Assembly: GCA_025357755.1 (NCBI GenBank) | Contig: JANXOP010000107.1 | Location: forward strand, 1 to 36,278 | Direction of reading: 5' to 3' | Length of the DNA: 36,278 bases | Origin: Kofleriaceae bacterium | GTDB lineage: Bacteria; Myxococcota_A; Polyangia; Haliangiales; Haliangiaceae | Part shown: positions 8,536 to 33,067 of the stretch, piece after piece | How the letters are laid out: each line of letters begins with the position of its first letter | How positions within the stretch are numbered: the stretch's first letter is position 1 | The notes under the pieces: generated by a model | What the model was told of the DNA's origin: nothing | Database searches by the model: none | The model's input: only the letters and a program-made list of their open reading frames with translations | Made by a program: the position numbers and the translations under genes

Positions 8536-8574
8536 ACCCGAAGACGTTGCCAAACTCCTGACAATCTTCGGGTA
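8535..8574. promoter_or_regulatory. Perfect 10-bp inverted repeat between divergent genes
   Basis: TACCCGAAGA (8535-8544) and TCTTCGGGTA (8565-8574) form a perfect 10-bp dyad with a 20-base spacer, so equivalent positions are 30 bases apart, about three helical turns. It fills the gap between the thioesterase-like gene and the lipoprotein gene and touches the upstream start of the former. Its position suggests an operator for a dimeric regulator controlling both genes. A long-loop mRNA hairpin is the alternative. Confidence 0.5.
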
Positions 8575-8592
8575 CTCACATAGGATGACCTC

Positions 8593-9216: not shown

Positions 9217-9226
9217 ATCTGCCTCC

Positions 9227-9247
9227 GGCCGCATTCGGCCCGGTTTT
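9227..9247 (+). terminator. Weak terminator after the lipoprotein gene
   Basis: GGCCG (9227-9231), loop CATT and CGGCC (9236-9240) form a short GC stem, followed by TTTT at 9244-9247. The stem is short, but the placement 10 bases after the stop codon fits an intrinsic terminator separating this gene from clpP. Confidence 0.4.
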
Positions 9248-9309
9248 CGGCTCACCTGCCTGTTCTGGCAGCGTTGCACCGAGGAGCCGAGCCTCGTAGA
9301 GTCGATCCA

Positions 9310-9939
9310 ATGAAGCCGCAGATGAGCTATCTGATTCCGACGGTGATCGAACAGACCCACCGCGGCGAGCGTGGGTGGGACATCTTCTCGCGTTTGCTGA
9401 AGGACCGCATCGTGTTCCTCGGCACCGCGATCGATGACCAGGTCGCAAACGTGATCATCGCCCAACTCCTGTTCCTCGATTCCGAGGAGCCGGAGAAGGA
9501 CATCATGCTGTACATCAACTCGCCGGGCGGTCACGTCTCGGCGGGTCTCGCGATCTACGACACGATGCAGTACCTGCACTGCGATGTCGCCACGATCTGC
9601 ATGGGCCAGGCAGCTTCGATGGGCAGCTTCCTGCTCGCCGCCGGCACCAAGGGCAAGCGCTACGCGCTCCCCCACTCGCAGGTGATGATCCACCAGCCGC
9701 TCGCGGGCTTCCAGGGCCAGGCGACGGACATCGAGATTCACACCAGGAACATCTTGAAGACGCGCGATGTGCTCAACGAGCTCTACTCGAAGCACACCGG
9801 TCAAGGGGTCGAGAAGATCAAGAACGACACCGATCGCGACAACTTCATGACCGCGCCACAGGCCAAGGAATACGGCTTGATCGACGAGGTCTTGATCACC
9901 GCGAAGAAGAAGGCCGACGAGAAAAGCGACAAGAAGTAG
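9310..9939 (+). CDS. clpP: ATP-dependent Clp protease proteolytic subunit ClpP
   Basis: This 209-residue protein is the serine peptidase subunit that forms the double-heptamer chamber of ClpXP. The catalytic triad is visible: Ser103 in GQAASMGSF, His128 in VMIHQPLAG and Asp177 in TDRDNFM. The oxyanion Gly pair is in INSPGG (residues 69-74), and the N-terminal region [10 protein letters not shown] is typical for the family. ATG 9310 was chosen; ATG 9322 ([11 protein letters not shown]) is possible, and the frame is open for 12 codons upstream without family similarity. The C-terminal Lys-rich tail ([11 protein letters not shown]) is an extension of about 10 residues. clpX follows 18 bases downstream, so the two are cotranscribed. 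Confidence 0.97.
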
Positions 9940-9957
9940 GCTACGCTGAGCGGTGTA

Positions 9958-11237
<1,280 letters not shown>

Positions 11238-11241
<4 letters not shown>

Positions 11242-14200
11242 GCGTCGGGCCAGCAACGCCGGCGTTCGAACGGGTACGACGGGAGCGCGACCCGCACGCG
11301 ATCCTGGCCGTGATAGAAGCCGTTCCAGTTCGGAGCGACGCCGCGCTCGTACAAGGTGCCGAGCGACGCGAGCATCTGATCCCGGTCAGCACGCGCGTCG
11401 GGATCGAGGGAGCTCAACCACACGCCGGGCCCGCCCTCGTTCGATCGACCGAGCACCGGGCGCGGTCCGATCTCGAGAAACACGTCGGTGCCTTCGCGCA
11501 CGAGCTCCTTGAGCGCGCGATCGAAGCGGGCGGTCTCGCGGGTCCAGTACTCCGCATCCAGCGAGCTCGTGTAGCGCTTGCCTGTGACCGTCGAGATCAA
11601 CGGGATCGCAGGTGCACGCCCCGTGACGCGACTCCCGGTCGCCAGCTGCATCGCATCCTCGATCGTGATCGCACCCGCGATCGCCGCGGCCGCATATTCG
11701 CCGATATCGTGACCCACCACGAGATCGGGGTAGACGCCCCAGCTCTGCCATAGCTCGGCGAGCGCGCACTCCACCGCGATCGTCGCCGCATCGCCATCCC
11801 ACGTCTCGGAGGATCGGCCGACCGCCTTCTCGCAGCGCTCGATCACGGCGCGAAACCGCGGCTCGAGGGCGATCAGCTGGTGCGCCATCTTCGCGGTCGC
11901 GGCGCCGCGGCCCGTGAACACGAACGCGATCCGCGCGGCACCACGACCGAGCGCGCGCTTGCTCGCGACCTCGCCGCGCGCGATCGCCGCGAGCTGGTCG
12001 CACATGGCTGCCGGCGTCGCTGCGACGATCGCGGCCCGTTGTGCGAAGTCGGCGCGGCCGAGGTTCGCGGTGAAGCAGACATCGGCGAGGTCGGCGGCTG
12101 GCGTCGTCGCGAGCTGGGTTGCATACCGATCGGCGAGCGTGCGCAGCGCCTCCTCGGAGCGCGCGGAGATCGTCAGGAACTGGCTCGGTAGCTCGCCCGT
12201 GGCCGCACGCGCGGGTGCGTGAACGCGCGCGAGCACCACGACCGCGTTGGAGCCCAGCAAGCCGAAACTGTTGACCACGGCGACCCGGCGGTCGGTCGCG
12301 GGCCAGGGCCGCGGTGCGGTCGGCGCGACGAGCGAGCCCCTGACCTCGGGGTCGGGGTCTTGAAGGTGAAGGAGCGCGGGAAGCTCGTCATGCGCGAGCA
12401 CGAGCGCGGCCTTGATCACGCCGAGCAGGCCGGAGGCCGAGCGCGTATCGCCGAGGTTCGCCTTGAGCGAACCGAGGATGCACGGCGCATCGGCCGCGCG
12501 ATCCTGACCGAGCACGCTCGCGAGCGCGCGTGCCTCGATCGCGTCGTACGCCGGCACGCCGCGCGCGTTGAGCTCGGCGTAGTGGATGTCCGCCGGGCGG
12601 ACGTTCGCCGCACGGACCGCCTCGCGCAGGACCTGCTCCTGCGAGGCTTCGTTCGGTGCGGTGAGGCCATGGCCCCGCCCGTTTTGCTTGATCGATGTCG
12701 CGAGGACCTCGGCGTGGATCCGGTTACGGCCGGTCTGCGCATCGGCGAGAGTCTTGAGCACGACCACGCCGCAGCCATCGGAGAGCACGCTGCCATCGGC
12801 GCTGGTATCGAGCGGTCGACAGCGGCCGGTCGCCGAGAGCAGCCGCGCCTTCGCGTACGCGATCGGTAGATCGGGCGTGAGCACCAGGTTGACGCCACAC
12901 GCGATCGCGACCTTGCACTCGCCACGCTGCAGGCTCTGCATCGCGAGGTGGAGTGCGACCAGCGACGAGTTGTCGCCCGAATCGATCGCGAATGACGGGC
13001 CCTTGAAGTTGAAGAAGTACGACAGCCGCTCCGCCGCGGCCGAGGCGCGATCGGTGAGCAGCAGCTCGGGCCGGGCGCGGATGAAGTCACTGCCCGAGAT
13101 CCCGACGAACACGCCGGTATCGCTACTCGCGAGCTCCTTCGGATCGATGCCCGCATCCTCGAGCGCTTGCCACGTGGTCTCGAGCAGCAGGCGGTGTTGT
13201 GGATCGATGTGCGCGGCGTCGCGAGGGGCGATACCGAAGAACGCGGCATCGAAATCGGTGATGCCTTCGATCATCCCACCCCACCGCACCGCACCGGTCG
13301 CAGCCACGCGATCCTCGGGGACCAGGGTGATCGCGTCGGTGTTCGCCTGGACGAGTTGCCACAGCTCGTTCGCATCGCGCGCGCCTGGCACCGAGCAGCC
13401 GATGCCGACGATCGCGATGCCAGCATCGATCGGAATCTGCTGGGTCGTGCGCGCGCGGCTATCCGCGCTCGTGAGCCGGCGCGCGATGCTGCGGATCGAA
13501 GATCGACCGCGCATCAGCGTGTCGGGGACGTCGTACTGGATCCACTCCGAGAGCGCGGTCTGGACCTCGATCATCGTCAGCGAGTCGAGGCCGTAGCCGC
13601 TGACCGGCGCATCGAGCTCGATCGCCTTCGCATTGATCCCGAGCCGCTTCGCGAGCAGCGACGCGAACCAGTTCTCGATCATGCTCGTGGCGAGATCGGT
13701 ATGGTTCGACACCCACGCCTCGACCGCCTCGGTGACGGCGGCGACGAGCTGTTGCGTGCCTGCCTTCGCAGGCAACACGCCACTGATCACGCCCCTCGCG
13801 AGCGCGTCGCGCACGGCCTCGGGATCTTCGAACGCGGTGATGTAGAGCCGCGCCGAGCGAGTCTCGGCGAGGGATGCGAGGAGCGCGAGATCGTCGCTGA
13901 CGATCGCGGCGTAGACGCCGGTCTTCGCGGCCGCGGCATCACCCGCGATCGCTGAGAGGTGTTGCTCGGCGAGAGCGCGCACGAACGTGTCCGCGCTCGC
14001 GGCACACACGAGCACGGCGGCCCTGCGCAGCGCCGCGAGATCCACGGCGAGCTTCGGCGGCGGCGCGAACTTCGCCGGCGAGGCGACCTCCGCCTGCGTC
14101 GCAGACGTCTCGAGCTTCGCCGCTGGTGGTGCCGGCGCGGCACCGACCGGCACCGCGGTGGGCTTGGACTTGTCCGCGCTCGCGACATCCGAGTGGCGCT

Positions 14201-16016
14201 TCGTGCCGTCGGAGCGCCAGTCTGCGAGCAGCTCGAGCTCGTTCGCATTGAATGCGGCCTTGCACGCACGGCGCTGCAGCTTGCCGCTCGAGGTCTTGTG
14301 GATGCTCCCGGCGCGGACGAGCACGATCGCGTGAGGCTCGAGCTCGTGGTGCGCGGCGATCGCATCGCGGAGATCCCAGAACAAGCGATCGACGTCGAGC
14401 GGCTCGTCCCCCGCGCGCTGCGGCGCGGCCGGATCCGGATCGCGACGCGACGGTTCGCCGCTGCGCCGATCGGTATTACGATCGCTGCGCCGGCGATCGC
14501 GATCGTGATAGCGCCGATCGACCTCGGCGACGACGACGACCCGCTCCTCTCCTGCCGTCTCGACCGCGAATGCGGCCACGCAGCCCGGTCGGATCGCCGC
14601 ATGCGTGCGCTCGACGGTGAGCTCGATGTCCTGCGGGTAGTGATTCGCGCCGCGCACGATGATGAGATCCTTGGCGCGACCACACACGTAGAGCTGATCG
14701 CCGAACATGAAGCCGAGGTCGCCGGTCCGCACGAAGGTGTGCACCGGATCGTCGGCGAGCTGGTTCACGAACGTCGCGACGGTCTCCTCGGTGCGCATCC
14801 AGTAGCCGTGGCCAACGCTGGCACCGGCGACCCAGATCTCGCCCACTCGATCGGGTGGACAACGCACGCCGGTGTCTGGATCGACGATCGCGATCGTCTG
14901 TCCCGGCGAGGGCTTGCCCGAGGCGACGAGCACCTGACCCTCACCGAGCTTCGCGATGCCAGCTTCGAGCGCGCTCTTGTCGAACGCGTGCGCGACCGGC
15001 GCCGCCGCGCGATCCGTGCCCGAGACGATCAGCGTCGCCTCGGCGAGGCCGTAACACGGGAACATCGCATTGCGCGAAAACTTCGAGACCGCGAAGGCCT
15101 CGGCGAACCGATCGATCGTCTCGAGCCGGATCGCTTCGGCGCCGTTGTACGCGAGCTTCCAGCACGACAGATCGAGCGCGGCGCGCTGCTCGGGCGTCGT
15201 CTTGCGCACGACGAGGTCGTACGCGAAGTTCGGGCCGCCACACACGCTGATCCGATAGTTGTGGACCGCCGCGACCCAGCGATACGGCTTCTCGAGGAAC
15301 GCGATCGGCGAGAGCCCGACCACCGAGCAGCCGCTGTATAGCGGTTGGAGCACGCCCGACATGAAGCCCATGTCGTGGAACATAGGCAGCCACGACAGGA
15401 TCCGATCATCGGGCCGGAACTCGAACGAGGCGAACACGCACTCGGCATTCGCGAGCAAGTTCGCGTGCGAGAGCATCACGCCCTTCGGCGTGCCCGTCGA
15501 GCCCGAGGTGTACTGCAGCATCGCGTACGTGTCGTCGTCGATCGCGGGGCGCGCCCAGTGATCACCGGCGCTAGACTCGACGCCATCGGTCGCGAGCCAT
15601 TCGAGCGTGCGCAGGTCCGGGGCTTGTGCGAACACGAAATCGGCGAGCGCGAGCAGGGGCCGCGTCGTCATCGCGAAGCGCGGCTTGGCATCGGCGACGA
15701 TCGCCTGGACGCGGGGCAACGTCCGCGCGAGGCGCTGTGGTTCGGGTGGATAGGCGGGGACCGGCGTCGCGCCGGCGTAGAGACAACCGAAGTAGCCCTC
15801 GATGAAGTCGATGCCCGGTGGGTAGAGCATCAGCACGTTCGTGCCAGTCGCACCCATCCCGCGCAGCGTGGTGCCGATCGCGCGCGCTCGGCGATCCATC
15901 TCGACCCACGTGCGAACATCTTCGGCCGACTCGCCGTCGCGGAGGTAGCGATACGCGACGACATCGCCGCGTTCTTCGGCGCGCGCCCGGAGCAGGTCGA
16001 CGATGGTGGGAGCCAT
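11238..16016 (-). CDS. FAAL / receiver-like / ACP / degenerate KS / degenerate AT multidomain protein
   Basis: This is a 1592-residue megasynthase-like protein. Residues 1-600 are a fatty acyl-AMP ligase: core [11 protein letters not shown] (169-179), TGDLG (431-435) and catalytic Lys579 in TSSGK, so adenylation looks intact. An Arg/Asp-rich insert lies at 501-540. Residues about 660-768 resemble a response-regulator receiver without its phospho-Asp. Residues 775-850 are an ACP with Ser812 in GLDSL. Residues 863-1265 are a ketosynthase in which the catalytic Cys-His-His are Asp1015, Asn1150 and Asp1190. Residues 1361-1530 are an acyltransferase with Asp1437 replacing the GHSxG serine and about 90-100 core residues missing. 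I infer that it loads a fatty acid onto its own ACP and does not extend it, with KS/AT acting as scaffold. Its ATG abuts the stop of the oxoamine synthase gene. Confidence 0.9.
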
Positions 16017-17234
16017 CTAGATCGCGCGGCGCCCGCGCTGGTTCCCCATCACCGCCATGCTTTGTTCGGCCGCCTCGGCCACCTTCATCACCTGCGCTGG
16101 CGTCAGCTCCGCGTGACACGAGAGCCGAGCCACGCCCGTCCCCTCGTCCACACCCGGCGCGACGAAGATCGAGGTCAGTACACCACGATCGCGCATGCCG
16201 CCGAAGAACGTGCAGGCATCGGTCTCGAGCGCGAACGCGATCGGCACGATCTGCGACTGGCTCGGCCTGGTCTCGATACCGTGGGCCGCGAGCTCGGTGC
16301 GCAGCAGCGCCGCCATCGCGAGGCAGTGCTTCGCGCGATGCTGTTCGGCTACCGCGATCCGCAGCGCCGCGAGGTGGCCTGCCGAGACATCGGGGAGCAC
16401 CGCGGAGCTGAACACGCTCGACCGCGAGCGATGCGTGAGGAACCACGCGACCTGCTTCTCGGCCGCGACCCAACCGCCGTGACCACCGAGCGCCTTCGAG
16501 AAGCTGCCGGTCCGGAAGTGCACGCGATCGGCGACACCCTCCTGGACGGCAAGGCCACCACCGCGCTCGCCGATCATGCCGAATGCGTGCGCCTCATCGG
16601 CGAGCAAGACGCTGTCATTGCTCTCGACGATCTCGACGATCTCGCGCAGGGGCGAGAAATCTCCGTGTACGGAGTAGCAGGTATCGATGCAGACGAGGCC
16701 AGGGCCGTAGCTCGCCATCTCTTCGGCGAGCGAGCTCGGATCGTTGTGACGAAATGCGATCGGTCGCCCGCTCGAGAACTTCGCGCCGTCCCACATCGAC
16801 GCGTGCGCACGCTCGTCGAGGTAGATCGGCATGCCCGCCTCGACGACCGATTCGATCAAGCCGAGGTTCGCGGTGTAGCCCGACACGGTCAGGAACACGT
16901 CGCCGGCACCCATCACGTCGGACATCAGCGCGCGGAGGTCATTGTTCTCCTGGCAGGCACCGCCGTAGATCACCGACGCCATGTTGCCGTTGCCGGAGAC
17001 CCGCAACGATTCGTACTTCGCCGCGATCACCTCGGGCCGTGCGGACAGGCGCAGGTAGTCGTTGAGGTGCAGCCCGATGTACGCTTCGTGGTGCTCGGGC
17101 AGATCGAACGGATACGGCTTGAACGAATCGACGCGACTCATGTAGTCGCGCATCCGCCGCTCGAACCACACCGGATGTAGCGCCCGAGACATCTCCTGCA
17201 ATAGTGAGCGTAGGCACGGTCCCGGGTCAATCAC
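16017..17234 (-). CDS. CqsA-like alpha-oxoamine synthase (PLP enzyme)
   Basis: This is a 405-residue fold-type I PLP enzyme of the alpha-oxoamine synthase family (KBL, AONS, SPT, CqsA), which joins an acyl thioester to an amino-acid-derived carbanion. The Schiff-base Lys247 is in TGSFSKALGG, Asp213 and His216 are in LLADEAHAFG, and His144 (DERAHASMW) is the ring-stacking position. Several blocks match CqsA as I remember it: PIYLDERAHASMWDG, PIAFRHND, DRVHF before the lysine, SQSQIV, and a late SIFVAP. CqsA of Vibrio makes the autoinducer CAI-1 precursor from decanoyl-CoA and SAM; LqsA of Legionella is related. GTG 17234 overlaps the kinase stop (GTGA); ATG 17192 is a possible internal start. 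The stop abuts the next ATG, so an acyl-ACP donor is likely. Serine palmitoyltransferase-like activity is the main alternative. Confidence 0.88.
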   Translation of the reverse strand: MIDPGPCLRSLLQEMSRALHPVWFERRMRDYMSRVDSFKPYPFDLPEHHEAYIGLHLNDYLRLSARPEVIAAKYESLRVSGNGNMASVIYGGACQENNDLRALMSDVMGAGDVFLTVSGYTANLGLIESVVEAGMPIYLDERAHASMWDGAKFSSGRPIAFRHNDPSSLAEEMASYGPGLVCIDTCYSVHGDFSPLREIVEIVESNDSVLLADEAHAFGMIGERGGGLAVQEGVADRVHFRTGSFSKALGGHGGWVAAEKQVAWFLTHRSRSSVFSSAVLPDVSAGHLAALRIAVAEQHRAKHCLAMAALLRTELAAHGIETRPSQSQIVPIAFALETDACTFFGGMRDRGVLTSIFVAPGVDEGTGVARLSCHAELTPAQVMKVAEAAEQSMAVMGNQRGRRAI

Positions 17235-20200
17235 GCGGGCAAGGCGAGTCTGTCAGGTGCGAACACCGGCGCGAGCAGTCGCGTCAAACCCGTGAGGTTT
17301 GCCACGCGCGCGGTGTGGGCCCAGGTCTGTGCGACTGCGACCTGCTCCGCGCCCGCGCTGCCTCCGATCAAGGTGCCGATCCGCAACCGTGCGACCATCT
17401 CGTAACCCGCGAGCTCGCCGATCTCGAACCCCGCACGTGCATGCGTGAGCAGCTCGAGCTCGCGCTGGTGATTCCCCTCGAGCGCAGCGACCTGCGCCCG
17501 CAGCAGGTTCGCCATCGCGCCACACCACGGGATCATCGAACGCTTGTCGAGGTGACGAGCGACCTTCTCGACGACGCTCAGATAAGAGCCGCGCTTGGTC
17601 GTCCGCATCGCGAGCGCGAGCGCGAGCCGCGCTTTGACCTCGCTCATGTAGATCTTCACCTCCTCGACGCGGAGCAGCAGGGCCTTCTCGAGCAGCGGCC
17701 AGGTCTTCTTGATTCGCGCCCACCCGAGCTCGGGTTGGTTCGCATACAGGTCGATGTTGAGCAGCGAGTAATCGGCCCAGTAGTGCTGGACCTGGTACCA
17801 GTCGCCCGGCCAGCTCGCGATCGATTCTTCGGCGATGGCACGCTGCGCGAGCGGATCGTCGGTCACGAGCGTCATCGCGATCCGCGGACAGCCGAGGGTC
17901 ATCGCGAGCCGACCGTACAGATCGCCACGCTCCGCCGCCTCGCGCTCGAGCGCGGGCACGCGATCGACCAGCGAGGCGATATCGCCGAGCCGATACCTCG
18001 ACCACGAACCGAACAACCGCGCGCTCGCGAGCTCCCACGGCACGCCACTGCACTGCGTGCGCAGCAGGTCCTCGGCCAGATCGCAGTAGTCCGAGCTCGC
18101 TCGGATATGACCCATCTCGTACGCCGAGATGCCCGAGGCGAGCAGATGGATGCCGGCGGCGTGCGGGTTATCGGTCTGCTGCGAGAGCTGCTTGGCGACC
18201 CCGAGCAGGTTCGCGACGCGCGGAGCCTGAGCCGCCCCGATCGTCGCGATGAAGCCGGCATCGAGCGACAGCGAGCGCGAGATTCGATACGGCTCGCCGG
18301 CATCGAGCGACAGGCGCAGGTTCAGGGTCTGGAACGCGTTCGCGCGGATCACGTCGACGATCGCGAGGCTCGTGCCGATGCCGTAGCAGGTGTCGATCAG
18401 CTGGAGCTGTTCGCGCGGAATCTCGGCGACCGCTCGCGGCGTGTAGTTCAGGCCGCGGATCTTGAGCCGGAACCGCCGCCACAGGAGCGACAGCAAGGCG
18501 CGCGTCGGGGTCTTGGCGAGCGACAGGTTCACCGTGCGCAGCACGTCGTCGATGATCCGCAGCCCGTCGTCTAGGTGGCCGGTATAGAGCAGCTGCTCGG
18601 CCGCGAGCCGCTGGTTGACCAGACGGCGTTCGACCGGCGCACCCTCGGCGGCAGCGAGGTACGCGGCCGCCGCCTCGGCGCCCCGCCCCGCGTTACGCAG
18701 CGCATCGCCGAGCCGCTCGTGGAGCGAGCGCCGGGTCTCGGGCTCGGGCCGCATCTCGAGCGCCTGGCGATACAAGCTCGCCGCGCGATCGAAGGCGAGC
18801 GCGGCCGCGGCGCGATCGCCGGCCTTGGTCGCGTACGTGAACGCGCGCTGGAGATCGCCCGCACCCTGGAAGTGGGTGACGAGCGCTTCCGGATCGGGCT
18901 GCTCGGGACCGTTCAACATCACGTGCGCGAGCACGCCGTGATCGTGCGCGAGCTGCTGCGGGGACAGCAGGCTCACGAGGAGCTCGCGGATCCGATCGTG
19001 ATACGGCTCGGCGAGATCGAGATCACCAACCCCCGAGGTCCGGATCAGCTGCGCGACCCGCAGCTGGTTCATCAGGGTGATCCGCTCCAGCGCGTCGATG
19101 CCCGCGGCGTGGCCGATCAAGATCTGGCTGATCGGCTGCCCCGCGACCGCGACGATCTCCATCAGCCGACGCGCGGACTCCGAGAGCCGCCCCACGCGCT
19201 TGCCGATCACCATGTCGAGCGACAGCGCGATGCCTTCGGTGAGCCCCTCGGCCTTCACGTAGCGCGCGAGCTCGTGGATGAAGTACGGATGGCCGCGCGA
19301 CTCGCGCGCGATCGTCCAGGCCGCATCGGTATCGGCGCCCTCGCTGGCCAGCAGCTGATACGCGAGCGAGCGTGATTCGTCCTCGGTGAGTGGGCCGACC
19401 TCGACCTCGCGCGCGGCGGCCCCGGGCGCGAGCAGACTGTCCTTGGAGAGCAGCGAGCTGAGCAGCGGGCTACGCGCCGCGTCCTCGCTGCGATAGCCGA
19501 GCAGCAACAGCAGCGGCGGCACGTTCGGCGGCCGCATCAGCTGCTCGAGCAACGGCGCACTGTCGCGATCGCCCCACTGCGCGTCGTCGATGAACAGCAC
19601 CAAGGGGCCGGTCGATGCGATCTTCGTGAGCAGCGCGCGCAACGCCGCGAACGCGCGGCGACGCAGCTCTTGAGGCTCGGGAGCCGCCTGCTTGTTGCGA
19701 TCGAGCCGCGCGAACATCGGTACGCTCTCGAGCACCGGAAACACGCGCGCGAGCGGTAACAGATCGCGCGGAGCGATCGCGGCGGCCGAGTCCTCGTCGA
19801 GCGAGAGCAGGTAGCGCGAGAGCGCATCGATCGCGGCATCGACGCCCTTGTACGGCACCTGCTCGCGCTCGTAGCAGCGCCCGGTGAGGATGACCCCCTT
19901 CGCGGTGCCGACCTCCTCGAGGAACTGATCGATCAGCGCCGACTTGCCCATGCCGGAGCTGCCATGGACGAGCACGGTCTGGCCGATGCCGCGCTTGACC
20001 TTCGCGAACGCGTCGCGCAGCTCCATGAGGTGGCGATCGCGACCCGAGAGGCCGCGCTGCGCTTCCATCTGCGCCGAGTTGCGATGGCGCGCGGTGACGT
20101 TGAGCTCGAGCAGCCGCGAGTCACGGGTCGCGCCGAGCCGGCTCAGCACTTCCTCGCCACGCGGTCGCTTTTCGGGATCGCGATGCAGGAGCTCGACGCA

Positions 20201-22030
20201 CAGCTCGACGAGATCGACCGGCAGATCGTCGCGGATCTCGTCCGGTCGGATCGGATCTTCGTCTTGCTTCGCGAACAGCACCTGCTCCATCGAGCCGACG
20301 TACGGCAGCGCGCCGGTCAGCACGCGATACAGGACGACTCCGACCGCGTACCAATCGCTCGCCTTGGTGACCTTGCCCCGCGCCTGCTCGGGAGCCATGT
20401 ACATCGGCGTACCCACGAGCTCTTGCGTGCCGTGCCGCGAAGCACCGAGCTCGGCGATCACACCGAAGTCGAGCAGCACGACGCGGCCATCGGGCTGGAC
20501 CAGCACGTTCGATGGCTTGATATCGCGATGCATGTGGCCGCTCGCGTGGAGCGCATAGACACCGTGCGCGAGCTGGAGCAGCGCATCGCGCAAGCGCACC
20601 CAGTTGATCGGCGTCGCATCGGCCTCGGCCTCCGCCTCGTCAGGTAACACCAGCGGTTCTTGCGCGATGGTGCGCTCGTCTTCGGCGGCGGCGTCGGCGC
20701 CGTGGCTGCTCAACACCGCGGTCGCTTCTTCGTGCACGAAGGCACTCTGGGGCGGGCGCGAGCTCCACGACTTCTGCGAGCTCAAGCTGCGCGTGCCGGC
20801 ATCGGCGGAGCGACCGCTCGCGTGCTCGCTCCCGCTGCGGCCACGCACGAACGAGACGAAGTCGGTGCCGTCGAGCAGCTCCATCGTGAAGAAGTAGTTG
20901 CCCTCGGTCGAGACCAGCTCGTAGAGCGCGATCAGGTTCGGGTGCGCGACATCGACGAGCGCACGGAACTCTTGCTTGAAGCGATAGATCGCACCCGGGT
21001 CGACGCGAAGCAAGGTCTTCAACGCGACCCTCATGCCGCGCTCGCGATCGATGGCTTCGTAGACCACGCCCATGCCGCCACGACCGAGCTGACGCGTGAC
21101 CTCGAACCGATCGGTGCCGGCGAACGCGAGCTTCTCGAGCTCCTTCGGCTTTGCCTTCTCGGCCTGGGTCGCTTCCTCGAACACGTCGAGCACGTCTTGC
21201 GCCGATGCGCGGGTCTCCGGGTCGCGGCTGAGCAGGTGCATCGCGAGCGCGTCGACCTCGGGCGGAATGCCGTCGACGAGCGCCGAGGGCGGCGCCGGAT
21301 CGTGCGAGACGAGCGCCGACATGTTCGCGGCGAACGGCAGCCGGCCCGTGAGCGCCTCGTACAGCATCACGCCGAGCGCGTACCAATCACTCGCCGGCGT
21401 GAGCGTGCCCGCGCCGGCCTGCTCGGGCGAGATGTACGTGCCATTGCTCGAGAGTGGATTGTCGAGCGTGGCAAACAGCGCCGCCTGATCCGTCATCCCG
21501 AAATCGGTGAGCACGACGCGCCCCTGCGCCGTGACGAGCACGTTGCTCGGCTTGAGGTTGTCGTGGCGCAGGCCGGCCTCGTGGAGCGCGGTGATACCGT
21601 CGGCGAGCTGGCGCATCACCGGGCGAAGCCGATCGAGATCGGCGCGCAACCGACGCGGGGTCGACGGCACGGTGTCGCCGTCGCTCGGTTGTTCGCGCGA
21701 GACCCACGCCATCACGTTGACGCCGTCGACGAGCTCCATCGCGTAGAACCACGAATCGGTGGTGAGCGCGAAATCGTAGAGCGCGACGAGGTTCGGATGA
21801 CGCGCGCGCGCCGCGACTTCGAAGCGCTGCTTGATCCGAGGTGCATCCTTCGGATCGAGATGCTGCAGGGATTTGAGCGCGACAACGTGCTGCGAGTCCG
21901 TGACTCGCGCCCGATAGACCGCACCTCCCAGCCAGTCGCGAACTTCGTAGCGCGCCGTACTCCGGGGTGCGCGGAAGCCGTGTTTCCCGAGCACTAAGGT
22001 ATATTTGCCCGACTTTGCGGGGGCCAGCAA
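17231..22030 (-). CDS. Pseudokinase-kinase-AAA ATPase-TPR signalling protein
   Basis: This is a protein of about 1599 residues. Kinase-like domain 1 (28-285) keeps Lys53 (VALK) and DFG (176-178), but its HRD loop is His156-Asp157-Asn158, so the catalytic Asp is Asn and the glycine loop is degenerate. Kinase domain 2 (309-632) looks active: GRGGMGVVY, Lys338, HRD 501-503, DFG 521-523 and APE at 546-548. It has an acidic/Ser-rich insert of about 75 residues (397-475). An AAA_16/STAND-type ATPase follows, with Walker A GSSGMGKS (690-697) and Walker B VLFIDD (811-816). About 600 residues of TPR-like helices end the protein. It presumably phosphorylates Ser/Thr in response to a ligand sensed by the ATPase-TPR part. 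TTG 22030 is used; GTG 21994 is equally likely. It overlaps the oxoamine synthase start, so it leads that operon. Confidence 0.9.
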   Translation of the reverse strand: MLAPAKSGKYTLVLGKHGFRAPRSTARYEVRDWLGGAVYRARVTDSQHVVALKSLQHLDPKDAPRIKQRFEVAARARHPNLVALYDFALTTDSWFYAMELVDGVNVMAWVSREQPSDGDTVPSTPRRLRADLDRLRPVMRQLADGITALHEAGLRHDNLKPSNVLVTAQGRVVLTDFGMTDQAALFATLDNPLSSNGTYISPEQAGAGTLTPASDWYALGVMLYEALTGRLPFAANMSALVSHDPAPPSALVDGIPPEVDALAMHLLSRDPETRASAQDVLDVFEEATQAEKAKPKELEKLAFAGTDRFEVTRQLGRGGMGVVYEAIDRERGMRVALKTLLRVDPGAIYRFKQEFRALVDVAHPNLIALYELVSTEGNYFFTMELLDGTDFVSFVRGRSGSEHASGRSADAGTRSLSSQKSWSSRPPQSAFVHEEATAVLSSHGADAAAEDERTIAQEPLVLPDEAEAEADATPINWVRLRDALLQLAHGVYALHASGHMHRDIKPSNVLVQPDGRVVLLDFGVIAELGASRHGTQELVGTPMYMAPEQARGKVTKASDWYAVGVVLYRVLTGALPYVGSMEQVLFAKQDEDPIRPDEIRDDLPVDLVELCVELLHRDPEKRPRGEEVLSRLGATRDSRLLELNVTARHRNSAQMEAQRGLSGRDRHLMELRDAFAKVKRGIGQTVLVHGSSGMGKSALIDQFLEEVGTAKGVILTGRCYEREQVPYKGVDAAIDALSRYLLSLDEDSAAAIAPRDLLPLARVFPVLESVPMFARLDRNKQAAPEPQELRRRAFAALRALLTKIASTGPLVLFIDDAQWGDRDSAPLLEQLMRPPNVPPLLLLLGYRSEDAARSPLLSSLLSKDSLLAPGAAAREVEVGPLTEDESRSLAYQLLASEGADTDAAWTIARESRGHPYFIHELARYVKAEGLTEGIALSLDMVIGKRVGRLSESARRLMEIVAVAGQPISQILIGHAAGIDALERITLMNQLRVAQLIRTSGVGDLDLAEPYHDRIRELLVSLLSPQQLAHDHGVLAHVMLNGPEQPDPEALVTHFQGAGDLQRAFTYATKAGDRAAAALAFDRAASLYRQALEMRPEPETRRSLHERLGDALRNAGRGAEAAAAYLAAAEGAPVERRLVNQRLAAEQLLYTGHLDDGLRIIDDVLRTVNLSLAKTPTRALLSLLWRRFRLKIRGLNYTPRAVAEIPREQLQLIDTCYGIGTSLAIVDVIRANAFQTLNLRLSLDAGEPYRISRSLSLDAGFIATIGAAQAPRVANLLGVAKQLSQQTDNPHAAGIHLLASGISAYEMGHIRASSDYCDLAEDLLRTQCSGVPWELASARLFGSWSRYRLGDIASLVDRVPALEREAAERGDLYGRLAMTLGCPRIAMTLVTDDPLAQRAIAEESIASWPGDWYQVQHYWADYSLLNIDLYANQPELGWARIKKTWPLLEKALLLRVEEVKIYMSEVKARLALALAMRTTKRGSYLSVVEKVARHLDKRSMIPWCGAMANLLRAQVAALEGNHQRELELLTHARAGFEIGELAGYEMVARLRIGTLIGGSAGAEQVAVAQTWAHTARVANLTGLTRLLAPVFAPDRLALPA

Positions 22031-22050
22031 GCGCGCGGTTCGTCCGCCTC
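21995..22050. promoter_or_regulatory. Short divergent promoter region of the kinase and MMPL operons
   Basis: If the kinase starts at GTG 21994 and the transporter at GTG 22051, only 56 bases separate two divergent operons. The region holds the one AT-rich patch nearby (AAGGTATATTTGCC, 21996-22009), whose TATATT could be a -10 element. No clear -35 or ribosome-binding site is visible. Leaderless or overlapping starts are possible. The call rests on position only. Confidence 0.35.
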
Positions 22051-24315
22051 GTGATCCGTCGTCGATGGCTCGTCCTCGCCACGATCGCGGTGATCTCGGT
22101 GATCGCGGCGTACTCGGCCCGGAACATCGAGATCCGGTTCGCGTTTCGCAACTTCTTCGACTACCCCGCGAACCCCGACGTCGCGACCATCGACCGCTAC
22201 CACGACTACTTCGAGGACCCCGCCGGGTTCGTGGCAGTTGTCTTGGAGAGCGATGATGTATTCGATCGGCGTACGCTGGCTTACGTCACCGAGCTCACGA
22301 GAGAGCTCGAACCGAATCCCCTCTTCTCCCACGTGCGCAGCCTCGCGAATGCGCGCGCGATCCGGTGGGTCAACGACAGCGTCGATGTGGGCCAGCTGCT
22401 CCCGCACCTACCCGCGACCCGGGCCGATTCGGATCGGCTGCGGACGATCGCGCGGGACAGCCGGCTGATCCATCGCCTGCTCGTCTCCGAGGACTCCCGC
22501 GCGACCCTGATCGCCGCACAGCTCGCCGTCCCGCCGTCATCGAGCACCCTCCCCGATCTGCGCCGCGCGATCGACGTCGTGAATCGCACGCTGGCGGCCC
22601 ACCCGCCGCCGCCGGGGATCACGTTCCGCGTCACCGGCGCGCCGACGCTCGAGGTCGAGGCGAGCGATGCCTTGGTCTACGACCAGATGGTGTTCACGCC
22701 GATCGCGATCCTGTTGATCGTGATCGAGCTGTGGCTCGGCTTACGCTGCATGCACGGCGTGGTCTTGCCCATGGTCGCGATCTCGATCGCGGCGATCTGG
22801 ACCGCTGGAATTTATCCGTGGTTCGGCCGTCCCATCGATATGGTCGCCTCGACGATTCCGGCGACGCTGCTCGTGTACGGCGCGGTCGATCCGATCTTCG
22901 TGTTGCGCCGCTACCTCGACAAGCTGCGCGCGGGGCTGACCAAGGAAGATGCGATCATCGCCACGTATCGCGAGCTCACGATGCCGTGCCTGCTCAGCTC
23001 GCTGACCACGGCGGTCGGGTTCGCCGCCTTCGCGACGCTGGATCTACCGATCATCGTGAACTTCGGCGCGATCATGGCGATCGGCGTGATGCTCGCGTTC
23101 CTCACGACGATGGTCGTGTTGCCCGTGTTGCTCGCGATCCTGCCGGTGCCCTCCCAGCTCGCGATCTCGACGCGGCTCGCGACCCGGATCGATCGCGCGC
23201 TCGCGGCGCTCTGGCGTTGGTTGAGCGCGCACCGGCGCAGCGTGTTGATCGTGGCGATCGCGCTGATCGCGGCGGGCGCGCTTTACACGAGCACGCGCCA
23301 GACCATCTCGGTCTATTACACGCGGATCCTGCCGCCCGGTTCGACCGAGAAAGACATCCGCTTCCTCGAGAGCAAGTTCGTCGGCGTGATCCGGAGCGCG
23401 GTGTTCATGGAAGGTCCCAAGGACATCATGAAGCAGCCGAGGACGCTGCGCGCGATCGAGAAGATCAGCGACACCGCCATCGCGTTCCCGATCGTGACCG
23501 CCGCGATCTCGGTCAGCGACATGGTGCGCGAGATGAACCGCGCGTTCATGGAGGGCGATCCGAAAGAGCTTCGCATCCCCGACTCCCTCACGCTCTCGGC
23601 GCAGTACCTCCAGATGCTCGATCCCGAAGATCGACAGCGCCTCCTCACCGAGGACGATGCGCGTTCGCACATCATGATCTTCTCGATGGACCACGGCACC
23701 GCCGAGTGGCGGCCGATGCGCGACAAGGTCATGGCGGTCGCCAAGCAGGAGCTCGAGCCGCTGAACATCGCTGTCCACATGACCGAGCAGAGCCCCGCGG
23801 GCTTCGACGCGCTCGACCGGCTCGTCCACGACGTGCTGTGGGGCTTCGTGGTCGCCTTCGGCCTCGTGCTCGTCCTGATCGCGGTGATCATGCGCTCGCT
23901 GCGCATCGCGTTATTGAGCGCGATCCCGAACCTCGTCCCCGTCGTCGCGTGCTTCGTCCTGCTCAGCGTATTCGGCATCACCCTGCGCGTGGGCACGGTG
24001 TTGTTCCTCAGCGTCTCGGTAGGCGGCTTGTTCAACACGACGATCCAGCTCGTCGCCCGGCTGCGTCAGCGAATCGCCGAGGATCCGACGCTCACACCCG
24101 ATGCCGCGATCGACGACGCGATCCGCGATGTAGGTCCACCAGCGCTGTTCACCGCTGTGATCCTGGCGCTCGGGTTCGCGATCTTTGGGCTATCGCGGTT
24201 TCCCGACCTGCGCGTCTTCGGACTGCTAGCCTCGAACACTCTGATCGTCGCGTTCGTTTCCGATATGATGCTGAGTACGACGCTGCTCCGGGTCTTTTTC
24301 CGATGGAGACGCTGA
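22051..24315 (+). CDS. MMPL/RND-family transporter
   Basis: This inner-membrane protein of about 754 residues has the duplicated RND layout. TM1 (WLVLATIAVISVIAAYS) leads into a large periplasmic domain starting NIEIRFAFRNFFDYP, followed by five TM segments ending VVLPVLLAIL. A second copy starts with TM WLSAHRRSVLIVAIALIAAG and ends SDMMLSTTLLRVFF. The repeat signature DAIIATYRELTMPCLLSSL in the first half is mirrored by DAIRDVGPPALFTAVIL in the second. The size (about 750 against over 1000 for drug-efflux RND pumps) fits the MMPL/hopanoid-type lipid exporters. It is driven by the proton motive force, and the substrate is probably a lipid. GTG 22051 is chosen because it puts basic residues just before TM1; TTG 22015 or GTG 21967 are alternatives. 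The stop overlaps the start of the LolA-like gene (TGATG). Confidence 0.9.
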   Translation: MIRRRWLVLATIAVISVIAAYSARNIEIRFAFRNFFDYPANPDVATIDRYHDYFEDPAGFVAVVLESDDVFDRRTLAYVTELTRELEPNPLFSHVRSLANARAIRWVNDSVDVGQLLPHLPATRADSDRLRTIARDSRLIHRLLVSEDSRATLIAAQLAVPPSSSTLPDLRRAIDVVNRTLAAHPPPPGITFRVTGAPTLEVEASDALVYDQMVFTPIAILLIVIELWLGLRCMHGVVLPMVAISIAAIWTAGIYPWFGRPIDMVASTIPATLLVYGAVDPIFVLRRYLDKLRAGLTKEDAIIATYRELTMPCLLSSLTTAVGFAAFATLDLPIIVNFGAIMAIGVMLAFLTTMVVLPVLLAILPVPSQLAISTRLATRIDRALAALWRWLSAHRRSVLIVAIALIAAGALYTSTRQTISVYYTRILPPGSTEKDIRFLESKFVGVIRSAVFMEGPKDIMKQPRTLRAIEKISDTAIAFPIVTAAISVSDMVREMNRAFMEGDPKELRIPDSLTLSAQYLQMLDPEDRQRLLTEDDARSHIMIFSMDHGTAEWRPMRDKVMAVAKQELEPLNIAVHMTEQSPAGFDALDRLVHDVLWGFVVAFGLVLVLIAVIMRSLRIALLSAIPNLVPVVACFVLLSVFGITLRVGTVLFLSVSVGGLFNTTIQLVARLRQRIAEDPTLTPDAAIDDAIRDVGPPALFTAVILALGFAIFGLSRFPDLRVFGLLASNTLIVAFVSDMMLSTTLLRVFFRWRR

Positions 24316-25100
24316 TGAAACTGCACTGGGTTGTCTTGACGGTGGCGGTGGCGGCGGGGTCGGCAGGGGCCGACGATAAGAAGGACGATAAGAAGCTGGA
24401 TGCGCGAACGATCGTCGACAAGGTCGTCGATGCGGATCCGTTCGGCATGATGGATTCGACGCTCACCGGGCGAGCGGTCCTGCACGACAAGAACAAGGAC
24501 GAGCGGATCCTGGAGTTCCACATGGATGCGCTGCGCTACAAGCCCGGCCTGTCGAAGACGATCACGCGCTTCTCGGCACCTGCCGATATCGCGGGTGTCG
24601 GCTTTCTCCAGATCATGCGCGACGACTCCGACGACGATCGGTTCTTGTATCTCCCCGATCTCAAGAAGTCGCGGCGCATCTCCGGTGCGCTCCGTAACAA
24701 CTCGTTCATGGGTACCGACTTCTCGTTCGCGGATCTCGACATGCGCGATCTCCGCGAGAGCAAGGCGACCCAGACCGGGACCGAGAAGATCGGCAAGTTC
24801 GAGTACTACAAGCTCGACGTTATCCCGACGCGCGAGGACACCAACTACTCGAAGTTCGAGTTGTGGGTCCGGACCGATAACTTCCTCGTGCTCAAGTGGT
24901 TGATGTACGACAAGTCCAAGACGCTGCTCAAGACCTGGCAAGCGTCGGAGATGAAGCGCGTGGATGGCCACTGGTACGCCAGCAAGGGCCGGATCGAGAA
25001 CCATCGCGAGAAGCACACCACCGACATGTTCCTCGACAACATGAAGGCGACGAAGGTCGCCGAGACCGAGTTCTCGGTGAACAAGCTCGAAAAGCTCTAG
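24315..25100 (+). CDS. LolA-like outer-membrane lipoprotein-sorting family protein
   Basis: This 261-residue periplasmic protein has signal peptide MKLHWVVLTVAVAAGSAGA, then a Lys/Asp-rich start DDKKDDKK. The mature part matches the LolA_like family that accompanies RND/MMPL transporters: LDARTIVDKVVDADPF, RFSAPADIAGVGFL, DDRFLYLPDLKKSRRI, GTDFSFADLDMRD, YYKLDVIPT and LKWLMYDKS. These proteins form a half-barrel that carries a hydrophobic molecule through the periplasm. It probably receives lipid from the transporter and passes it to the outer-membrane barrel encoded two genes downstream. ATG 24315 overlaps the transporter stop; ATG 24303 (METLMK) is an alternative. The FHA gene starts 3 bases after its stop. 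Confidence 0.88.
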   Translation: MKLHWVVLTVAVAAGSAGADDKKDDKKLDARTIVDKVVDADPFGMMDSTLTGRAVLHDKNKDERILEFHMDALRYKPGLSKTITRFSAPADIAGVGFLQIMRDDSDDDRFLYLPDLKKSRRISGALRNNSFMGTDFSFADLDMRDLRESKATQTGTEKIGKFEYYKLDVIPTREDTNYSKFELWVRTDNFLVLKWLMYDKSKTLLKTWQASEMKRVDGHWYASKGRIENHREKHTTDMFLDNMKATKVAETEFSVNKLEKL

Positions 25101-25103
25101 CTG

Positions 25104-26552
25104 ATGTCGAACCGGATCGTGCCGTTCCCCGGGACCTTCGACCAGCGCGAGGAGCGCACGGTCATGGTGCCCGTGGCGCGGCTCGTCCTGCGCGCGACCG
25201 CTGGACCCCTGCGCGGTCAGGTGTTCACGTTCGATGGCGGGCCGTTCGTGATCGGGCGCGGCGCGACCTGCACGGTCTCGATCCCGAGCCAAGCGGTCTC
25301 GCGCGCGCACGCGCGGATCGAGTTCGGTAACGGCAGCTACTGGATCATTCCGGAGAAGACCGTCAACGGCACGCGCGTCAACGGCAACCTCGTACAGGAG
25401 CCGACGCAGCTCACCGATCGAGACAAGGTCGCGATCGACGACTCCGCGTTCGTGGTGTCGTGCCGCGAGCCGGGCCAGGACCTCGACTTCGAGGATCTCG
25501 CCGCACCTCCACCGCCCGCGCACTCTCCCCTGACCCGCGAGTCGGTGACCGCGATGTCGAGCGCCGCGCCGCGCTACTCCGCGCAGATCGCAGGACAGAT
25601 CGATCCGCGCGTCTCGCAACCGCACGTGCCGGCCGTGCAGATCGATCCGCGCTACTCGCAGCCGCACCTGGAGGCGCAGCCGTATCCGTACTATCCGCCG
25701 CCGTATGCCTACGCGGCACCGCCCGCGAAGCGCAACCTCGGTCTGTGGGCACTCGCGGGGGTCGGCCTGCTCGCGCTGGTTGGAGGTGTCGTCGTCGCGA
25801 CCGTGAAGCTGATGGGCCCGACGACCGTCGTTGCCCCTGCTCCTGCGCCCATCGTCGTCCAACCGGTCCAACCGGTCCAGCCGGTCCAGCCGGTCCAGCC
25901 GCTCGTCACGCAACCCGCACCGGTCGTGGTCGAGACGCCACCGCCGCCGGTCGTGACCAAGCCCGAGGTCAAACCGGAGATCAAACCCGTGCCCGCTGTG
26001 GGCGGCAAGGGCGTGCTCGTGATCGCGAGCGCGCCGGTGACCGCCTCGTCGCGCGGCACGGTCGTCGATGTCGTCAAGGTCGGCGCCGCGGTCAAGCGCG
26101 AGACGGGCGTCGGTCACGTGCGGCTGTACTCCGCGAACTTCGATGCCGCGCAAGCCAAGCTCGCCTCGCTGCAGAAGAAGTACGGCACGTCCGAGGACTA
26201 CGCCGACTTCATCGCACAAGCCAAGCAAGACTATCTCGCCGCCGCGCGCCGTCGCGAGGTCAAGCCGCTCGAGTCGACCGTCGAAGGGACCGTGACGAAG
26301 GTCAAGGTTCGGCCGGGTGACGAGCTTCGTGCCAAGCAGATCGTGGCCGAGGTCGCGACCGCGAAGGTCACCGCGCCGGCCGAGGCGATCGAAGGCAGCG
26401 GGATCACGTGCGTGGTGACGCTCGGCTCGGGCGCGAAGCTCGAGGGCACGCTGCTCGCGGCCGGCTCGACCGAACGTACGATCGAGCTCGACCGCGTTCC
26501 GAAGGACGTGGCGGCGGGCAATCTCGGCGACGTCGTGATTCACTGCGAATAG
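25104..26552 (+). CDS. FHA domain - TM - periplasmic adaptor-like fusion protein
   Basis: This is a 482-residue protein. Residues 26-118 are an FHA phosphothreonine-binding domain: FVIGRG (49-53), AVSRAHARI with Ser66, Arg67 and His69, and NGTRVNG (88-94). A Pro/Gln-rich cytoplasmic linker follows, then one TM helix at about 213-236 (LWALAGVGLLALVGGVVVAT) and a PVQ repeat linker (252-266). The C-terminal part looks like a split lipoyl/barrel-sandwich domain: half one SSRGTVVDVVKVGAAV (315-330), a helical stretch (345-383), and half two VEGTVTKVKVRPGDELRAKQ (393-412). This is the order seen in HlyD-type membrane fusion proteins. An N-in topology puts FHA in the cytoplasm and the adaptor in the periplasm. 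The gene sits between the LolA-like and outer-membrane barrel genes and abuts the latter. The FHA call is firm; the adaptor call is from pattern only. Confidence 0.85.
   Translation: MSNRIVPFPGTFDQREERTVMVPVARLVLRATAGPLRGQVFTFDGGPFVIGRGATCTVSIPSQAVSRAHARIEFGNGSYWIIPEKTVNGTRVNGNLVQEPTQLTDRDKVAIDDSAFVVSCREPGQDLDFEDLAAPPPPAHSPLTRESVTAMSSAAPRYSAQIAGQIDPRVSQPHVPAVQIDPRYSQPHLEAQPYPYYPPPYAYAAPPAKRNLGLWALAGVGLLALVGGVVVATVKLMGPTTVVAPAPAPIVVQPVQPVQPVQPVQPLVTQPAPVVVETPPPPVVTKPEVKPEIKPVPAVGGKGVLVIASAPVTASSRGTVVDVVKVGAAVKRETGVGHVRLYSANFDAAQAKLASLQKKYGTSEDYADFIAQAKQDYLAAARRREVKPLESTVEGTVTKVKVRPGDELRAKQIVAEVATAKVTAPAEAIEGSGITCVVTLGSGAKLEGTLLAAGSTERTIELDRVPKDVAAGNLGDVVIHCE
25858..25902 (+). repeat. 9-bp tandem repeat encoding PVQ linker
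   Basis: A CCGGTCCAR unit is repeated about four times plus partial copies and encodes (PVQ)n just after the transmembrane helix of the FHA protein. The first copies carry CCA and the later ones CAG endings, so the array has begun to diverge. It is probably a stiff periplasmic spacer. Confidence 0.75.
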
Positions 26553-29628: not shown

Positions 29629-29647
29629 CCCGCGAGTATAGGCCCAG

Positions 29648-31243: not shown

Positions 31244-31264
31244 GATCGTTGATACCACGTCGCG

Positions 31265-33021: not shown

Positions 33022-33040
33022 GCCGACCAGGTTACTCCGA

Positions 33041-33067
33041 AAATGCAAACGCCCCTTTGGAAGGGGC
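33041..33067 (-). terminator. Intrinsic terminator of the outer-membrane barrel gene
   Basis: GCCCCTT (33051-33057) and AAGGGGC (33061-33067) form a perfect 7-bp stem with a 3-base loop. Read on the minus strand it is followed by GTTTGCATTTT. It begins 23 bases after the stop codon at 33091, in the right place to end that transcript before the two-component operon. Confidence 0.8.

What the first reader, a model, noticed from the sequence alone, without database searches (positions are those of the whole stretch)
11238..22030. CqsA-like autoinducer-type synthase fused by operon to an acyl-AMP ligase/ACP and a signalling kinase
Three minus-strand genes overlap or abut: kinase-ATPase-TPR (GTGA overlap), alpha-oxoamine synthase (stop directly abuts next ATG), FAAL-ACP protein. 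The synthase shares with remembered CqsA the blocks PIYLDERAHASMWDG, FRHND, DRVHF before the PLP lysine and SQSQI. Known CqsA/LqsA use acyl-CoA; here a FAAL and an ACP are encoded alongside, so the donor could be acyl-ACP. This would be a self-contained maker of an aminoketone or hydroxyketone lipid, possibly a signal, in a lineage not known to me for CAI-1 signalling.
Basis: partly seen in the sequence, partly recalled or inferred. Interest (0 to 1): 0.88.

Follow-up and report, generated by a model that had tools for sequence, protein, structure and literature searches.

The report
CqsA-like aminoketone synthase with acyl loader
A bacterium carries a relative of the enzyme that makes the cholera-type quorum signal, in one operon with a protein that probably loads fatty acids for it and that includes a polyketide module whose catalytic residues are gone; it probably makes a fatty aminoketone, but whether that is a signal is unknown.

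Summary
Three minus-strand genes (17231-22030 kinase-ATPase, 16017-17234 oxoamine synthase, 11238-16016 FAAL-ACP) overlap by GTGA and abut as TAG|ATG. The synthase is sister to the CqsA clade (joint clade 100/100), outside SPT, KBL and BioF. Its one close relative found in 317 genomes of the class (46%, G269) also sits beside a FAAL and an ACP; no FAAL was seen around six CqsA-side loci. Best reading: FAAL loads a fatty acid on the ACP, and the CqsA-type enzyme, not a ketosynthase, condenses it with an amino acid or SAM to an alpha-aminoketone. Acyl-ACP feeding of an oxoamine synthase is known (AasR/AcpR/SPT); a CqsA-side enzyme beside a dead KS-AT is the new part. A head-to-head MMPL/LolA-like/DUF1302 operon may export the product. 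A signalling role is unproven: no CqsS-type sensor was found, and the kinase gene is not seen beside the G269 synthase.

The parts
16017..17234 (-). CqsA-side alpha-oxoamine synthase (405 aa), PLP lysine K247 at 16494-16496; a later ATG start near 17192 is also possible
   Evidence: best NCBIfam model PRK07179, 269 bits, cut-off 428 not reached; sister of CqsA clade; K247, D213, H216, H144 among the invariant columns of nine family members
11238..16016 (-). FAAL-ACP-KS(dead)-AT(dead, truncated) protein, 1592 aa
14202..16016 (-). FAAL domain (residues 1-605), motifs [11 protein letters not shown] and KTSSGKLQR present
   Evidence: (50% to Leptolyngbya PKS FAAL, 24% to E. coli FadD)
13692..14201 (-). 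unassigned ~170-aa stretch between FAAL and ACP
   Evidence: No Pfam family above its cut-off, one PDB match at E 0.73 only, model of residues 645-860 unusable (mean pLDDT 44.9)
13473..13670 (-). ACP, phosphopantetheine serine 812 (codon 13581-13583) present
12177..13436 (-). pseudo-ketosynthase: Cys position 1015 is Asp (12972-12974), His position 1150 is Asn (12567-12569), His position 1190 is Asp (12447-12449)
11241..12176 (-). KS-AT linker, pseudo-acyltransferase (Ser position 1437 is Asp, 11706-11708; roughly 80-95 residues absent against CurL) and post-AT linker
17231..22030 (-). Ser/Thr kinase x2 - AAA_16 protein, first gene of the operon; first kinase domain has HDN for HRD and no glycine loop (probable pseudokinase, by eye), second has HRD, DFG and glycine loop
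   Evidence: paralogous family
22051..24315 (+). MMPL/RND-type permease, head-to-head with the operon (start inferred)
   Evidence: weak PDB matches to MmpL4, HpnN
24552..25094 (+). LolA_like periplasmic carrier domain
25104..26552 (+). FHA-domain protein
26553..28502 (+). DUF1302-type protein, probable outer-membrane barrel
   Evidence: no PDB relative

Best explanation
The operon makes a long-chain alpha-aminoketone from an ACP-bound acyl group. The FAAL adenylates a free fatty acid and loads it on the ACP of the same polypeptide (inferred from the FAAL and ACP motifs). The KS-AT that follows cannot elongate or load an extender because its catalytic residues are gone (loss shown in sequence, inactivity inferred), so the acyl group is handed to the CqsA-type PLP enzyme encoded directly upstream, which condenses it with an amino acid or SAM by the decarboxylative or CqsA-type chemistry of this family (inferred). 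The dead KS-AT is kept as structural or docking scaffold (inferred, the weakest step). The product may be reduced to a hydroxyketone elsewhere and may leave the cell by the divergent MMPL/LolA-like/DUF1302 proteins (inferred from gene position only). The kinase gene in front probably regulates the operon (inferred). Whether the product is a signal or a lipid is left open here and treated under the rivals.
For: Tree of 45 oxoamine synthases: window + G269 protein 100/98, joined with 5 CqsA or CqsA-like references and 3 unnamed relatives at 100/100, separate from SPT and KBL/BioF. Of 14 columns that mark the CqsA side, the window has the CqsA-side residue in 5 and G269 in 8, e.g. S244 (10 of 10 CqsA-side, T in 34 of 35 others) and Q328. 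FAAL and ACP beside both members of the sub-clade, in different arrangements; no FAAL match around 6 of 6 other CqsA-side loci examined (L092; L033, L094, L096, L104, L105). KS: 3 of 3 catalytic residues replaced, each intact in 21 of 21 homologues; conserved columns lost in 13 of 24 near the active site against 15 of 91 elsewhere. Acyl-ACP feeding of an oxoamine synthase is shown by experiment for AasR/AcpR/SPT (PMC9386255, abstract). Synthase and FAAL genes abut.
Against: Only one other genome has a sub-clade member, and its contig (12,405 bases) ends inside the synthase gene, so the rest of that locus is unseen. The two FAALs are not each other's nearest kin among six compared: the window FAAL is 36% identical to that of G269, 42% to that of G064 and 50% to a cyanobacterial one, so the pairing may have arisen twice. 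In 9 of 14 CqsA-marking columns the window does not have the CqsA-side residue. The KS-AT might be a decaying remnant: it keeps 87 of 115 conserved KS columns (76%) where homologues keep 82-99%. No amino substrate or chain length can be read from sequence.
Confidence: 0.6

Rival explanations
1. Membrane-lipid route: the synthase is the organism's serine-palmitoyltransferase equivalent and makes a sphingoid-type base for structural lipids, with FAAL/ACP in the roles of AasR/AcpR. (Shares the acyl-ACP step with the best explanation; differs in substrate and purpose.)
For: Acyl synthetase, ACP and synthase stand together in Rhodobacteria sphingolipid operons (PMC9386255; E. coli plasmid example L098), and that paper lists distant AcpR and AasR homologues in three myxobacteria, in other genomic contexts (passages). 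The own genome shows two other oxoamine synthases at E 0.001, one with E. coli KBL, one in the unresolved BioF/KBL area, none of SPT type (assembly 89.9% complete). The G269 locus has a fatty acid desaturase between ACP and synthase.
Against: The synthase lies on the CqsA side, not with either SPT group. It was not found in 15 of 15 same-genus genomes at E 1e-40, odd for a structural membrane lipid. The three-gene operon holds no further sphingolipid gene; I did not search the rest of the genome for them.
Confidence: 0.2
2. Quorum signal: a CAI-1/LAI-1 type hydroxyketone autoinducer sensed by the producer. (Compatible with the chemistry of the best explanation.)
For: Sister position to CqsA; a kinase gene in the operon; a divergent exporter-like operon.
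Against: CqsA/LqsA/JqsA genes are reported to be adjacent to a cognate sensor histidine kinase (PMC3566124, passage); here the neighbour is a Ser/Thr kinase, and a CqsS sensor-domain query found nothing in the own genome (the tool warns that an empty answer without a positive control shows nothing). But my crude motif scan found a neighbouring histidine kinase in only 2 of 7 CqsA-side loci (L094, L096), so its absence weighs little. The nearest histidine kinase (31265-32347) looks by eye like an ordinary short sensor, not a CqsS.
Confidence: 0.2
3. Remnant of a lipopeptide/polyketide cluster: a truncated PKS starter beside an unrelated synthase, no longer functional as a pathway.
For: KS and AT have lost their catalytic residues and the AT is truncated; the best relatives of the whole protein are ordinary FAAL-ACP-KS-AT starters and of the KS-AT ordinary PKS modules.
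Against: Open frame of 1592 codons with like third-position GC in FAAL, ACP, KS and AT; FAAL, ACP and synthase motifs present; losses concentrated at the KS active site; 33 of 36 conserved columns kept in the linker/AT part that could be aligned.
Confidence: 0.15

Closest known systems
CqsA / LqsA / JqsA alpha-hydroxyketone autoinducer synthases
   Same: PLP oxoamine synthase, joint clade 100/100, part of the clade's marking residues (5 of 14)
   Different: Sister group, not inside the clade; below the NCBIfam cut-off (269 of 428 bits); FAAL-ACP neighbour; CqsA is reported with acyl-CoA (PMC3376566 and PMC3285556, passages)
AasR-AcpR-SPT sphingolipid system of Rhodobacteria
   Same: Dedicated acyl activating enzyme and dedicated ACP feed an oxoamine synthase (PMC9386255)
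   Different: There three separate proteins and an SPT; here FAAL and ACP are one chain with a dead KS-AT, and the synthase is CqsA-side
FAAL-ACP-KS-AT polyketide starter proteins (Leptolyngbya, Nostoc)
   Same: Domain order and sequence of P0001 (42.1% over 87% of the query for Leptolyngbya)
   Different: KS Cys/His/His and AT Ser replaced, AT truncated, protein ends after the post-AT linker, no elongation partner in the operon
BioWF acyl-activating/AONS fusion
   Same: Acyl activation coupled to an oxoamine synthase (PMC9544090, listing only)
   Different: Via acyl-CoA, in biotin synthesis
AmeABCD-type RND/LolA-superfamily/DUF1302 proteins (Castellaniella)
   Same: Inner-membrane RND, LolA-superfamily and DUF1302 proteins together (PMC6394551, passage)
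   Different: Here divergent from a synthase operon and with an FHA protein; substrate unknown

Membership tests
CqsA/LqsA autoinducer synthase | Falls inside the CqsA/LqsA clade | tested here: not met
   Sister to it; the clade without window and G269 has 100/97. No verified LqsA in the tree; Cupriavidus stands for that side by inference
CqsA/LqsA autoinducer synthase | Passes the curated family model | tested here: not met
   Best model is PRK07179 but 269 bits against a cut-off of 428; over the cut-off in 0 of 20 relatives and 0 of 14 control genomes, so no positive control was seen
CqsA/LqsA autoinducer synthase | Adjacent cognate sensor histidine kinase | tested here: not met
   Neighbour is a Ser/Thr kinase. 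Vibrio L094 and Cupriavidus L096 have a histidine kinase next door, but the crude scan saw none in 5 of 7 CqsA-side loci, two of them cut short
CqsA/LqsA autoinducer synthase | Makes alpha-amino/hydroxyketone from acyl thioester and SAM or aminobutyrate | not testable with these tools
   needs an assay
Alpha-oxoamine synthase family | Catalytic residues (PLP Lys, Asp, His pair) | tested here: met
   K247, D213, H216, H144 invariant in a 9-sequence alignment with KBL, BioF, SPT and CqsA
Serine palmitoyltransferase | Groups with SPT | tested here: not met
Fatty acyl-AMP ligase | Closest to FAALs rather than acyl-CoA ligases, active-site motifs present | tested here: met
   Best PDB chains are named polyketide synthase (AMP-ligase part, my inference), then FadD32/23/28 AMP ligases; 24% to FadD against 32-50% to four FAALs
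Fatty acyl-AMP ligase | Loads ACP, not CoA | not testable with these tools
   needs an assay
Type I PKS extension module | KS Cys-His-His and AT Ser | tested here: not met
   Asp, Asn, Asp and Asp at 1015, 1150, 1190 and 1437
AasR/AcpR/SPT-type system | Acyl synthetase and ACP genes next to the oxoamine synthase | tested here: met
   Window, and G269 locus
AasR/AcpR/SPT-type system | The synthase is an SPT | tested here: not met

The most novel reading that the evidence does not exclude
A polyketide starter module in which the ketosynthase has been disarmed and functionally replaced in trans by a CqsA-type PLP enzyme: the pseudo-KS-AT presents the acyl-ACP and docks the oxoamine synthase, giving an assembly line that ends in an aminoketone signal or lipid exported by a dedicated MMPL system.
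Probability: 0.3. Interest if true: 0.78.

Novelty: new variant of a known kind. Interest (0 to 1): 0.57.

Why it matters
It places a deep sister branch beside the CqsA autoinducer synthases and ties it, in both members seen, to acyl-ACP supply. If the dead KS-AT is a scaffold, it shows how a PKS module can be turned into a delivery platform for a PLP enzyme, a useful design rule for making amino-ketone lipids. It makes the question whether CqsA-type enzymes can use acyl-ACP directly testable with two proteins expressed in E. coli.

Tried and rejected
Synthase as KBL/BioF/SPT: rejected by the tree. Foreign or misbinned contig: the own assembly is 5.7% contaminated, and synthase, MMPL and DUF1302 genes had no match in 15 of 15 same-genus genomes at the thresholds used (1e-40, 1e-60, 1e-10). 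Tetranucleotide usage of the window correlates 0.80-0.92 with 7 stretches from 5 other contigs of its genome, 0.80-0.86 with 7 same-genus stretches and 0.21-0.74 with 11 class/phylum stretches; 11238-28502 alone 0.74-0.87 with the own stretches. So misbinning is unlikely and recent transfer from a distant donor is not favoured. Receiver-like domain between FAAL and ACP: my visual impression only; Pfam and PDB give nothing and the structure model failed; no fold search was run. Kinase as part of the pathway: weak. Promoter- or terminator-like sites between the divergent operons: none found in 21700-22600 by a sigma-70 consensus scan. The single genome-contig scan found only a 26% Desulfobacteraceae fragment, left out of the tree. 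Plasmids: best 32.6%, Tistrella, no FAAL match within 12 kb. Print searches that returned no paper: alpha-oxoamine synthase + fatty acyl-AMP ligase, CqsA + fatty acyl-AMP ligase, oxoamine synthase + polyketide synthase + myxobacteria, sphingolipid + Myxococcus + SPT + deltaproteobacteria, pseudo-ketosynthase terms; one search returned two papers not on this arrangement by their listing. The library lacks most subscription journals.

Full report
OBSERVATION. The window (36,278 bases, 66.5% GC) has three minus-strand genes in the order kinase (17231-22030), oxoamine synthase (16017-17234), FAAL protein (11238-16016). The kinase stop and synthase start share GTGA and the synthase TAG is followed directly by ATG. 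The operon ends tail to tail with a ClpX-like gene (9958-11241). Upstream, head-to-head, stands a second gene row: MMPL/RND permease (from about 22051, start inferred), LolA_like carrier, FHA protein, DUF1302 protein.

SYNTHASE. Best PDB relative is V. cholerae CqsA (E about 4e-44) and best NCBIfam model is PRK07179, the hydroxyketone autoinducer synthase, at 269 bits where 428 are required. In a 45-row tree (references: 5 CqsA or CqsA-like, 4 SPT, 4 KBL/BioF; one 228-aa fragment, L004, dropped; other rows are hits that passed E 1e-40 or 1e-45) the window protein pairs with the G269 protein (100/98), the pair is sister to the CqsA references plus L013, L016 and L017 (100/97), and the ten together have 100/100. 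The label CqsA-like for Tistrella and Cupriavidus is mine, from identity to CqsA (41.7 and 44.6%). Of 14 columns chosen to mark the CqsA side (residue in at least 8 of the 10, rare in the 35 others), the window has the marking residue in 5 and G269 in 8; S244 is in 10 of 10 against T in 34 of 35. That is what a deep branch would show, and it also means that the likeness to CqsA is partial. PLP lysine and the other invariant residues are there.

DISTRIBUTION. At E 1e-40 no hit in 15 of 15 same-genus and 14 of 14 same-family genomes (completeness 59-99%). In 317 genomes of the class 5 pass 1e-45, the own one included; only G269 reaches 46%. In 377 sampled genomes of the phylum 18 pass, the own one included. 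In these two searches only the best few candidates per genome were scored. The own genome shows two further oxoamine synthases at E 0.001, KBL- and BioF/KBL-like. The cassette has the composition of its genome.

FAAL/ACP LINKAGE. In G269 (L032; the contig ends inside the synthase gene) the order is FAAL, ACP overlapping by ATGA, fatty acid desaturase, synthase, on one strand. Of the 11 class loci whose surroundings I fetched, 4 have a FAAL match near the synthase (L032, L035, L036, L037); three of these four synthases lie outside the CqsA clade. L036 is one 1080-aa frame FAAL-ACP-synthase and L035 one 1496-aa frame with a further luciferase-like monooxygenase part; the domain names other than FAAL and synthase are read by eye. 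Around 6 of 6 CqsA-side loci examined no FAAL match was found, but the stretches are unequal (4-12 kb each side; L033 is a 6.8-kb contig with the synthase at its end; L095 was not examined). L104 has ACP and KS-AT matches 5-9 kb from its synthase.

KINASE. No kinase match in the visible part of the G269 contig. Kinase-domain matches do occur near other oxoamine synthases, in L002, L034 and L035, 3 of the 14 loci given, none of them CqsA-side; kinases are common in these genomes. The ATPase/C-terminal part of the window protein matches at 1e-60 in 14 of 16 genus genomes, own included, at 30-47%.

THE DEAD KS-AT. P0001 continues past the ACP into KS and AT. Against CurL KS-AT (4mz0) and 21 homologues (16 best class hits plus L093 and L101-L104, my choice) the KS cysteine is Asp (residue 1015) and both histidines are Asn and Asp (1150, 1190), each intact in 21 of 21. 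The AT serine is Asp (1437); of 20 homologues with a letter there, 17 have Ser and 3 Gly, so AT loss alone is not rare. Roughly 80-95 residues of the AT are absent relative to CurL. P0001 keeps 87 of 115 KS columns conserved in at least 95% of homologues; leave-one-out values for the homologues are 82-99%. Losses are denser near the active site (13 of 24) than elsewhere (15 of 91), Fisher p 3.5e-4; I set the loop borders after seeing the alignment, so this p value is optimistic. In the alignable linker/AT part 33 of 36 conserved columns are kept. The nearest relatives are ordinary PKS modules (44-48% in this class) and FAAL-ACP-KS-AT starters of cyanobacteria.

MECHANISM. FAAL (best PDB chains: a 572-aa chain named polyketide synthase, then FadD-type AMP ligases) and ACP Ser812 look functional. 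With no working KS downstream, the abutting synthase is the obvious acceptor of the acyl group. This is the logic shown by experiment for AasR/AcpR/SPT (PMC9386255, abstract and passages). Shown here: gene order, kept and lost residues, tree position. Inferred: loading, transfer, amino substrate, scaffold role, export, regulation.

SIGNAL OR LIPID. CqsA-type genes are reported to be always adjacent to a cognate sensor kinase (PMC3566124, passage). Histidine kinases are next door in Vibrio L094 and Cupriavidus L096, but my crude scan saw none in the other 5 of 7 CqsA-side loci, two of them cut short, so the lack of one here is weak evidence. A CqsS sensor query found nothing in the own genome (no positive control). 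The divergent MMPL/LolA-like/DUF1302 set resembles AmeABCD genes (PMC6394551, passage) and, like the synthase, was not found in 15 of 15 same-genus genomes (MMPL at 1e-60; DUF1302 at 1e-10), which fits one accessory unit. I rate export of an aminoketone or hydroxyketone plausible and signal function open. The odds given for best explanation and rivals are not exclusive: signal and lipid are both compatible with the acyl-ACP step.

NOVELTY. Acyl-ACP feeding of an oxoamine synthase: known. CqsA homologues in Myxococcaceae: reported from BLAST (PMC7694542, passages). That the phylum here is Myxococcota is my inference from genome sizes and gene content; no call names it. New as far as my searches go: a sister branch of CqsA tied to FAAL-ACP, and beside it a KS-AT with every catalytic residue replaced. 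The print searches are listed under Tried and rejected.

Noticed in passing
L036:9631-12873 (G064), L035:9398-13888 (G278), L037:8542-13304 (G091): FAAL-ACP-oxoamine synthase in one frame (1080 aa), FAAL-ACP-luciferase-like monooxygenase-synthase in one frame (1496 aa), and a FAAL next to a GNAT-like/synthase fusion (886 aa); their synthases lie outside the CqsA clade. Domain names other than FAAL and synthase are by eye.
   Followed up: partly
genomes; own L002, L003: The CqsA family model rings in 19 of 20 relatives, 0 over its cut-off, and in 8 of 14 controls such as E. coli; the own genome's two other hits lie with KBL or in the BioF/KBL area. The printed statement that myxobacteria generally appear able to make CAI-1 (PMC7694542, passages) may rest on such superfamily matches; I did not examine those genomes.
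   Followed up: partly
window 21188-21925: First kinase domain of the kinase-ATPase protein has HDN in place of HRD and no glycine-rich loop: probable pseudokinase in front of an intact-looking kinase.
   Followed up: partly
window 9958-11241 and 7981-10269: ClpX-like gene with zinc finger, overlapping the end of the operon by 4 bases tail to tail; the 762-aa ORF on the other strand has a DUF4442 domain only at its C-terminal end, the rest is probably not coding.
   Followed up: no
window 28486-33069: Flavin monooxygenase-like, carboxylesterase, histidine kinase and response regulator genes in a row on the minus strand.
   Followed up: no
L104:16332-19592 (G338): A PKS a few kb from a CqsA-like synthase whose AT motif reads GAG instead of GHS; L077 and L089 read GHG.
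   Followed up: no
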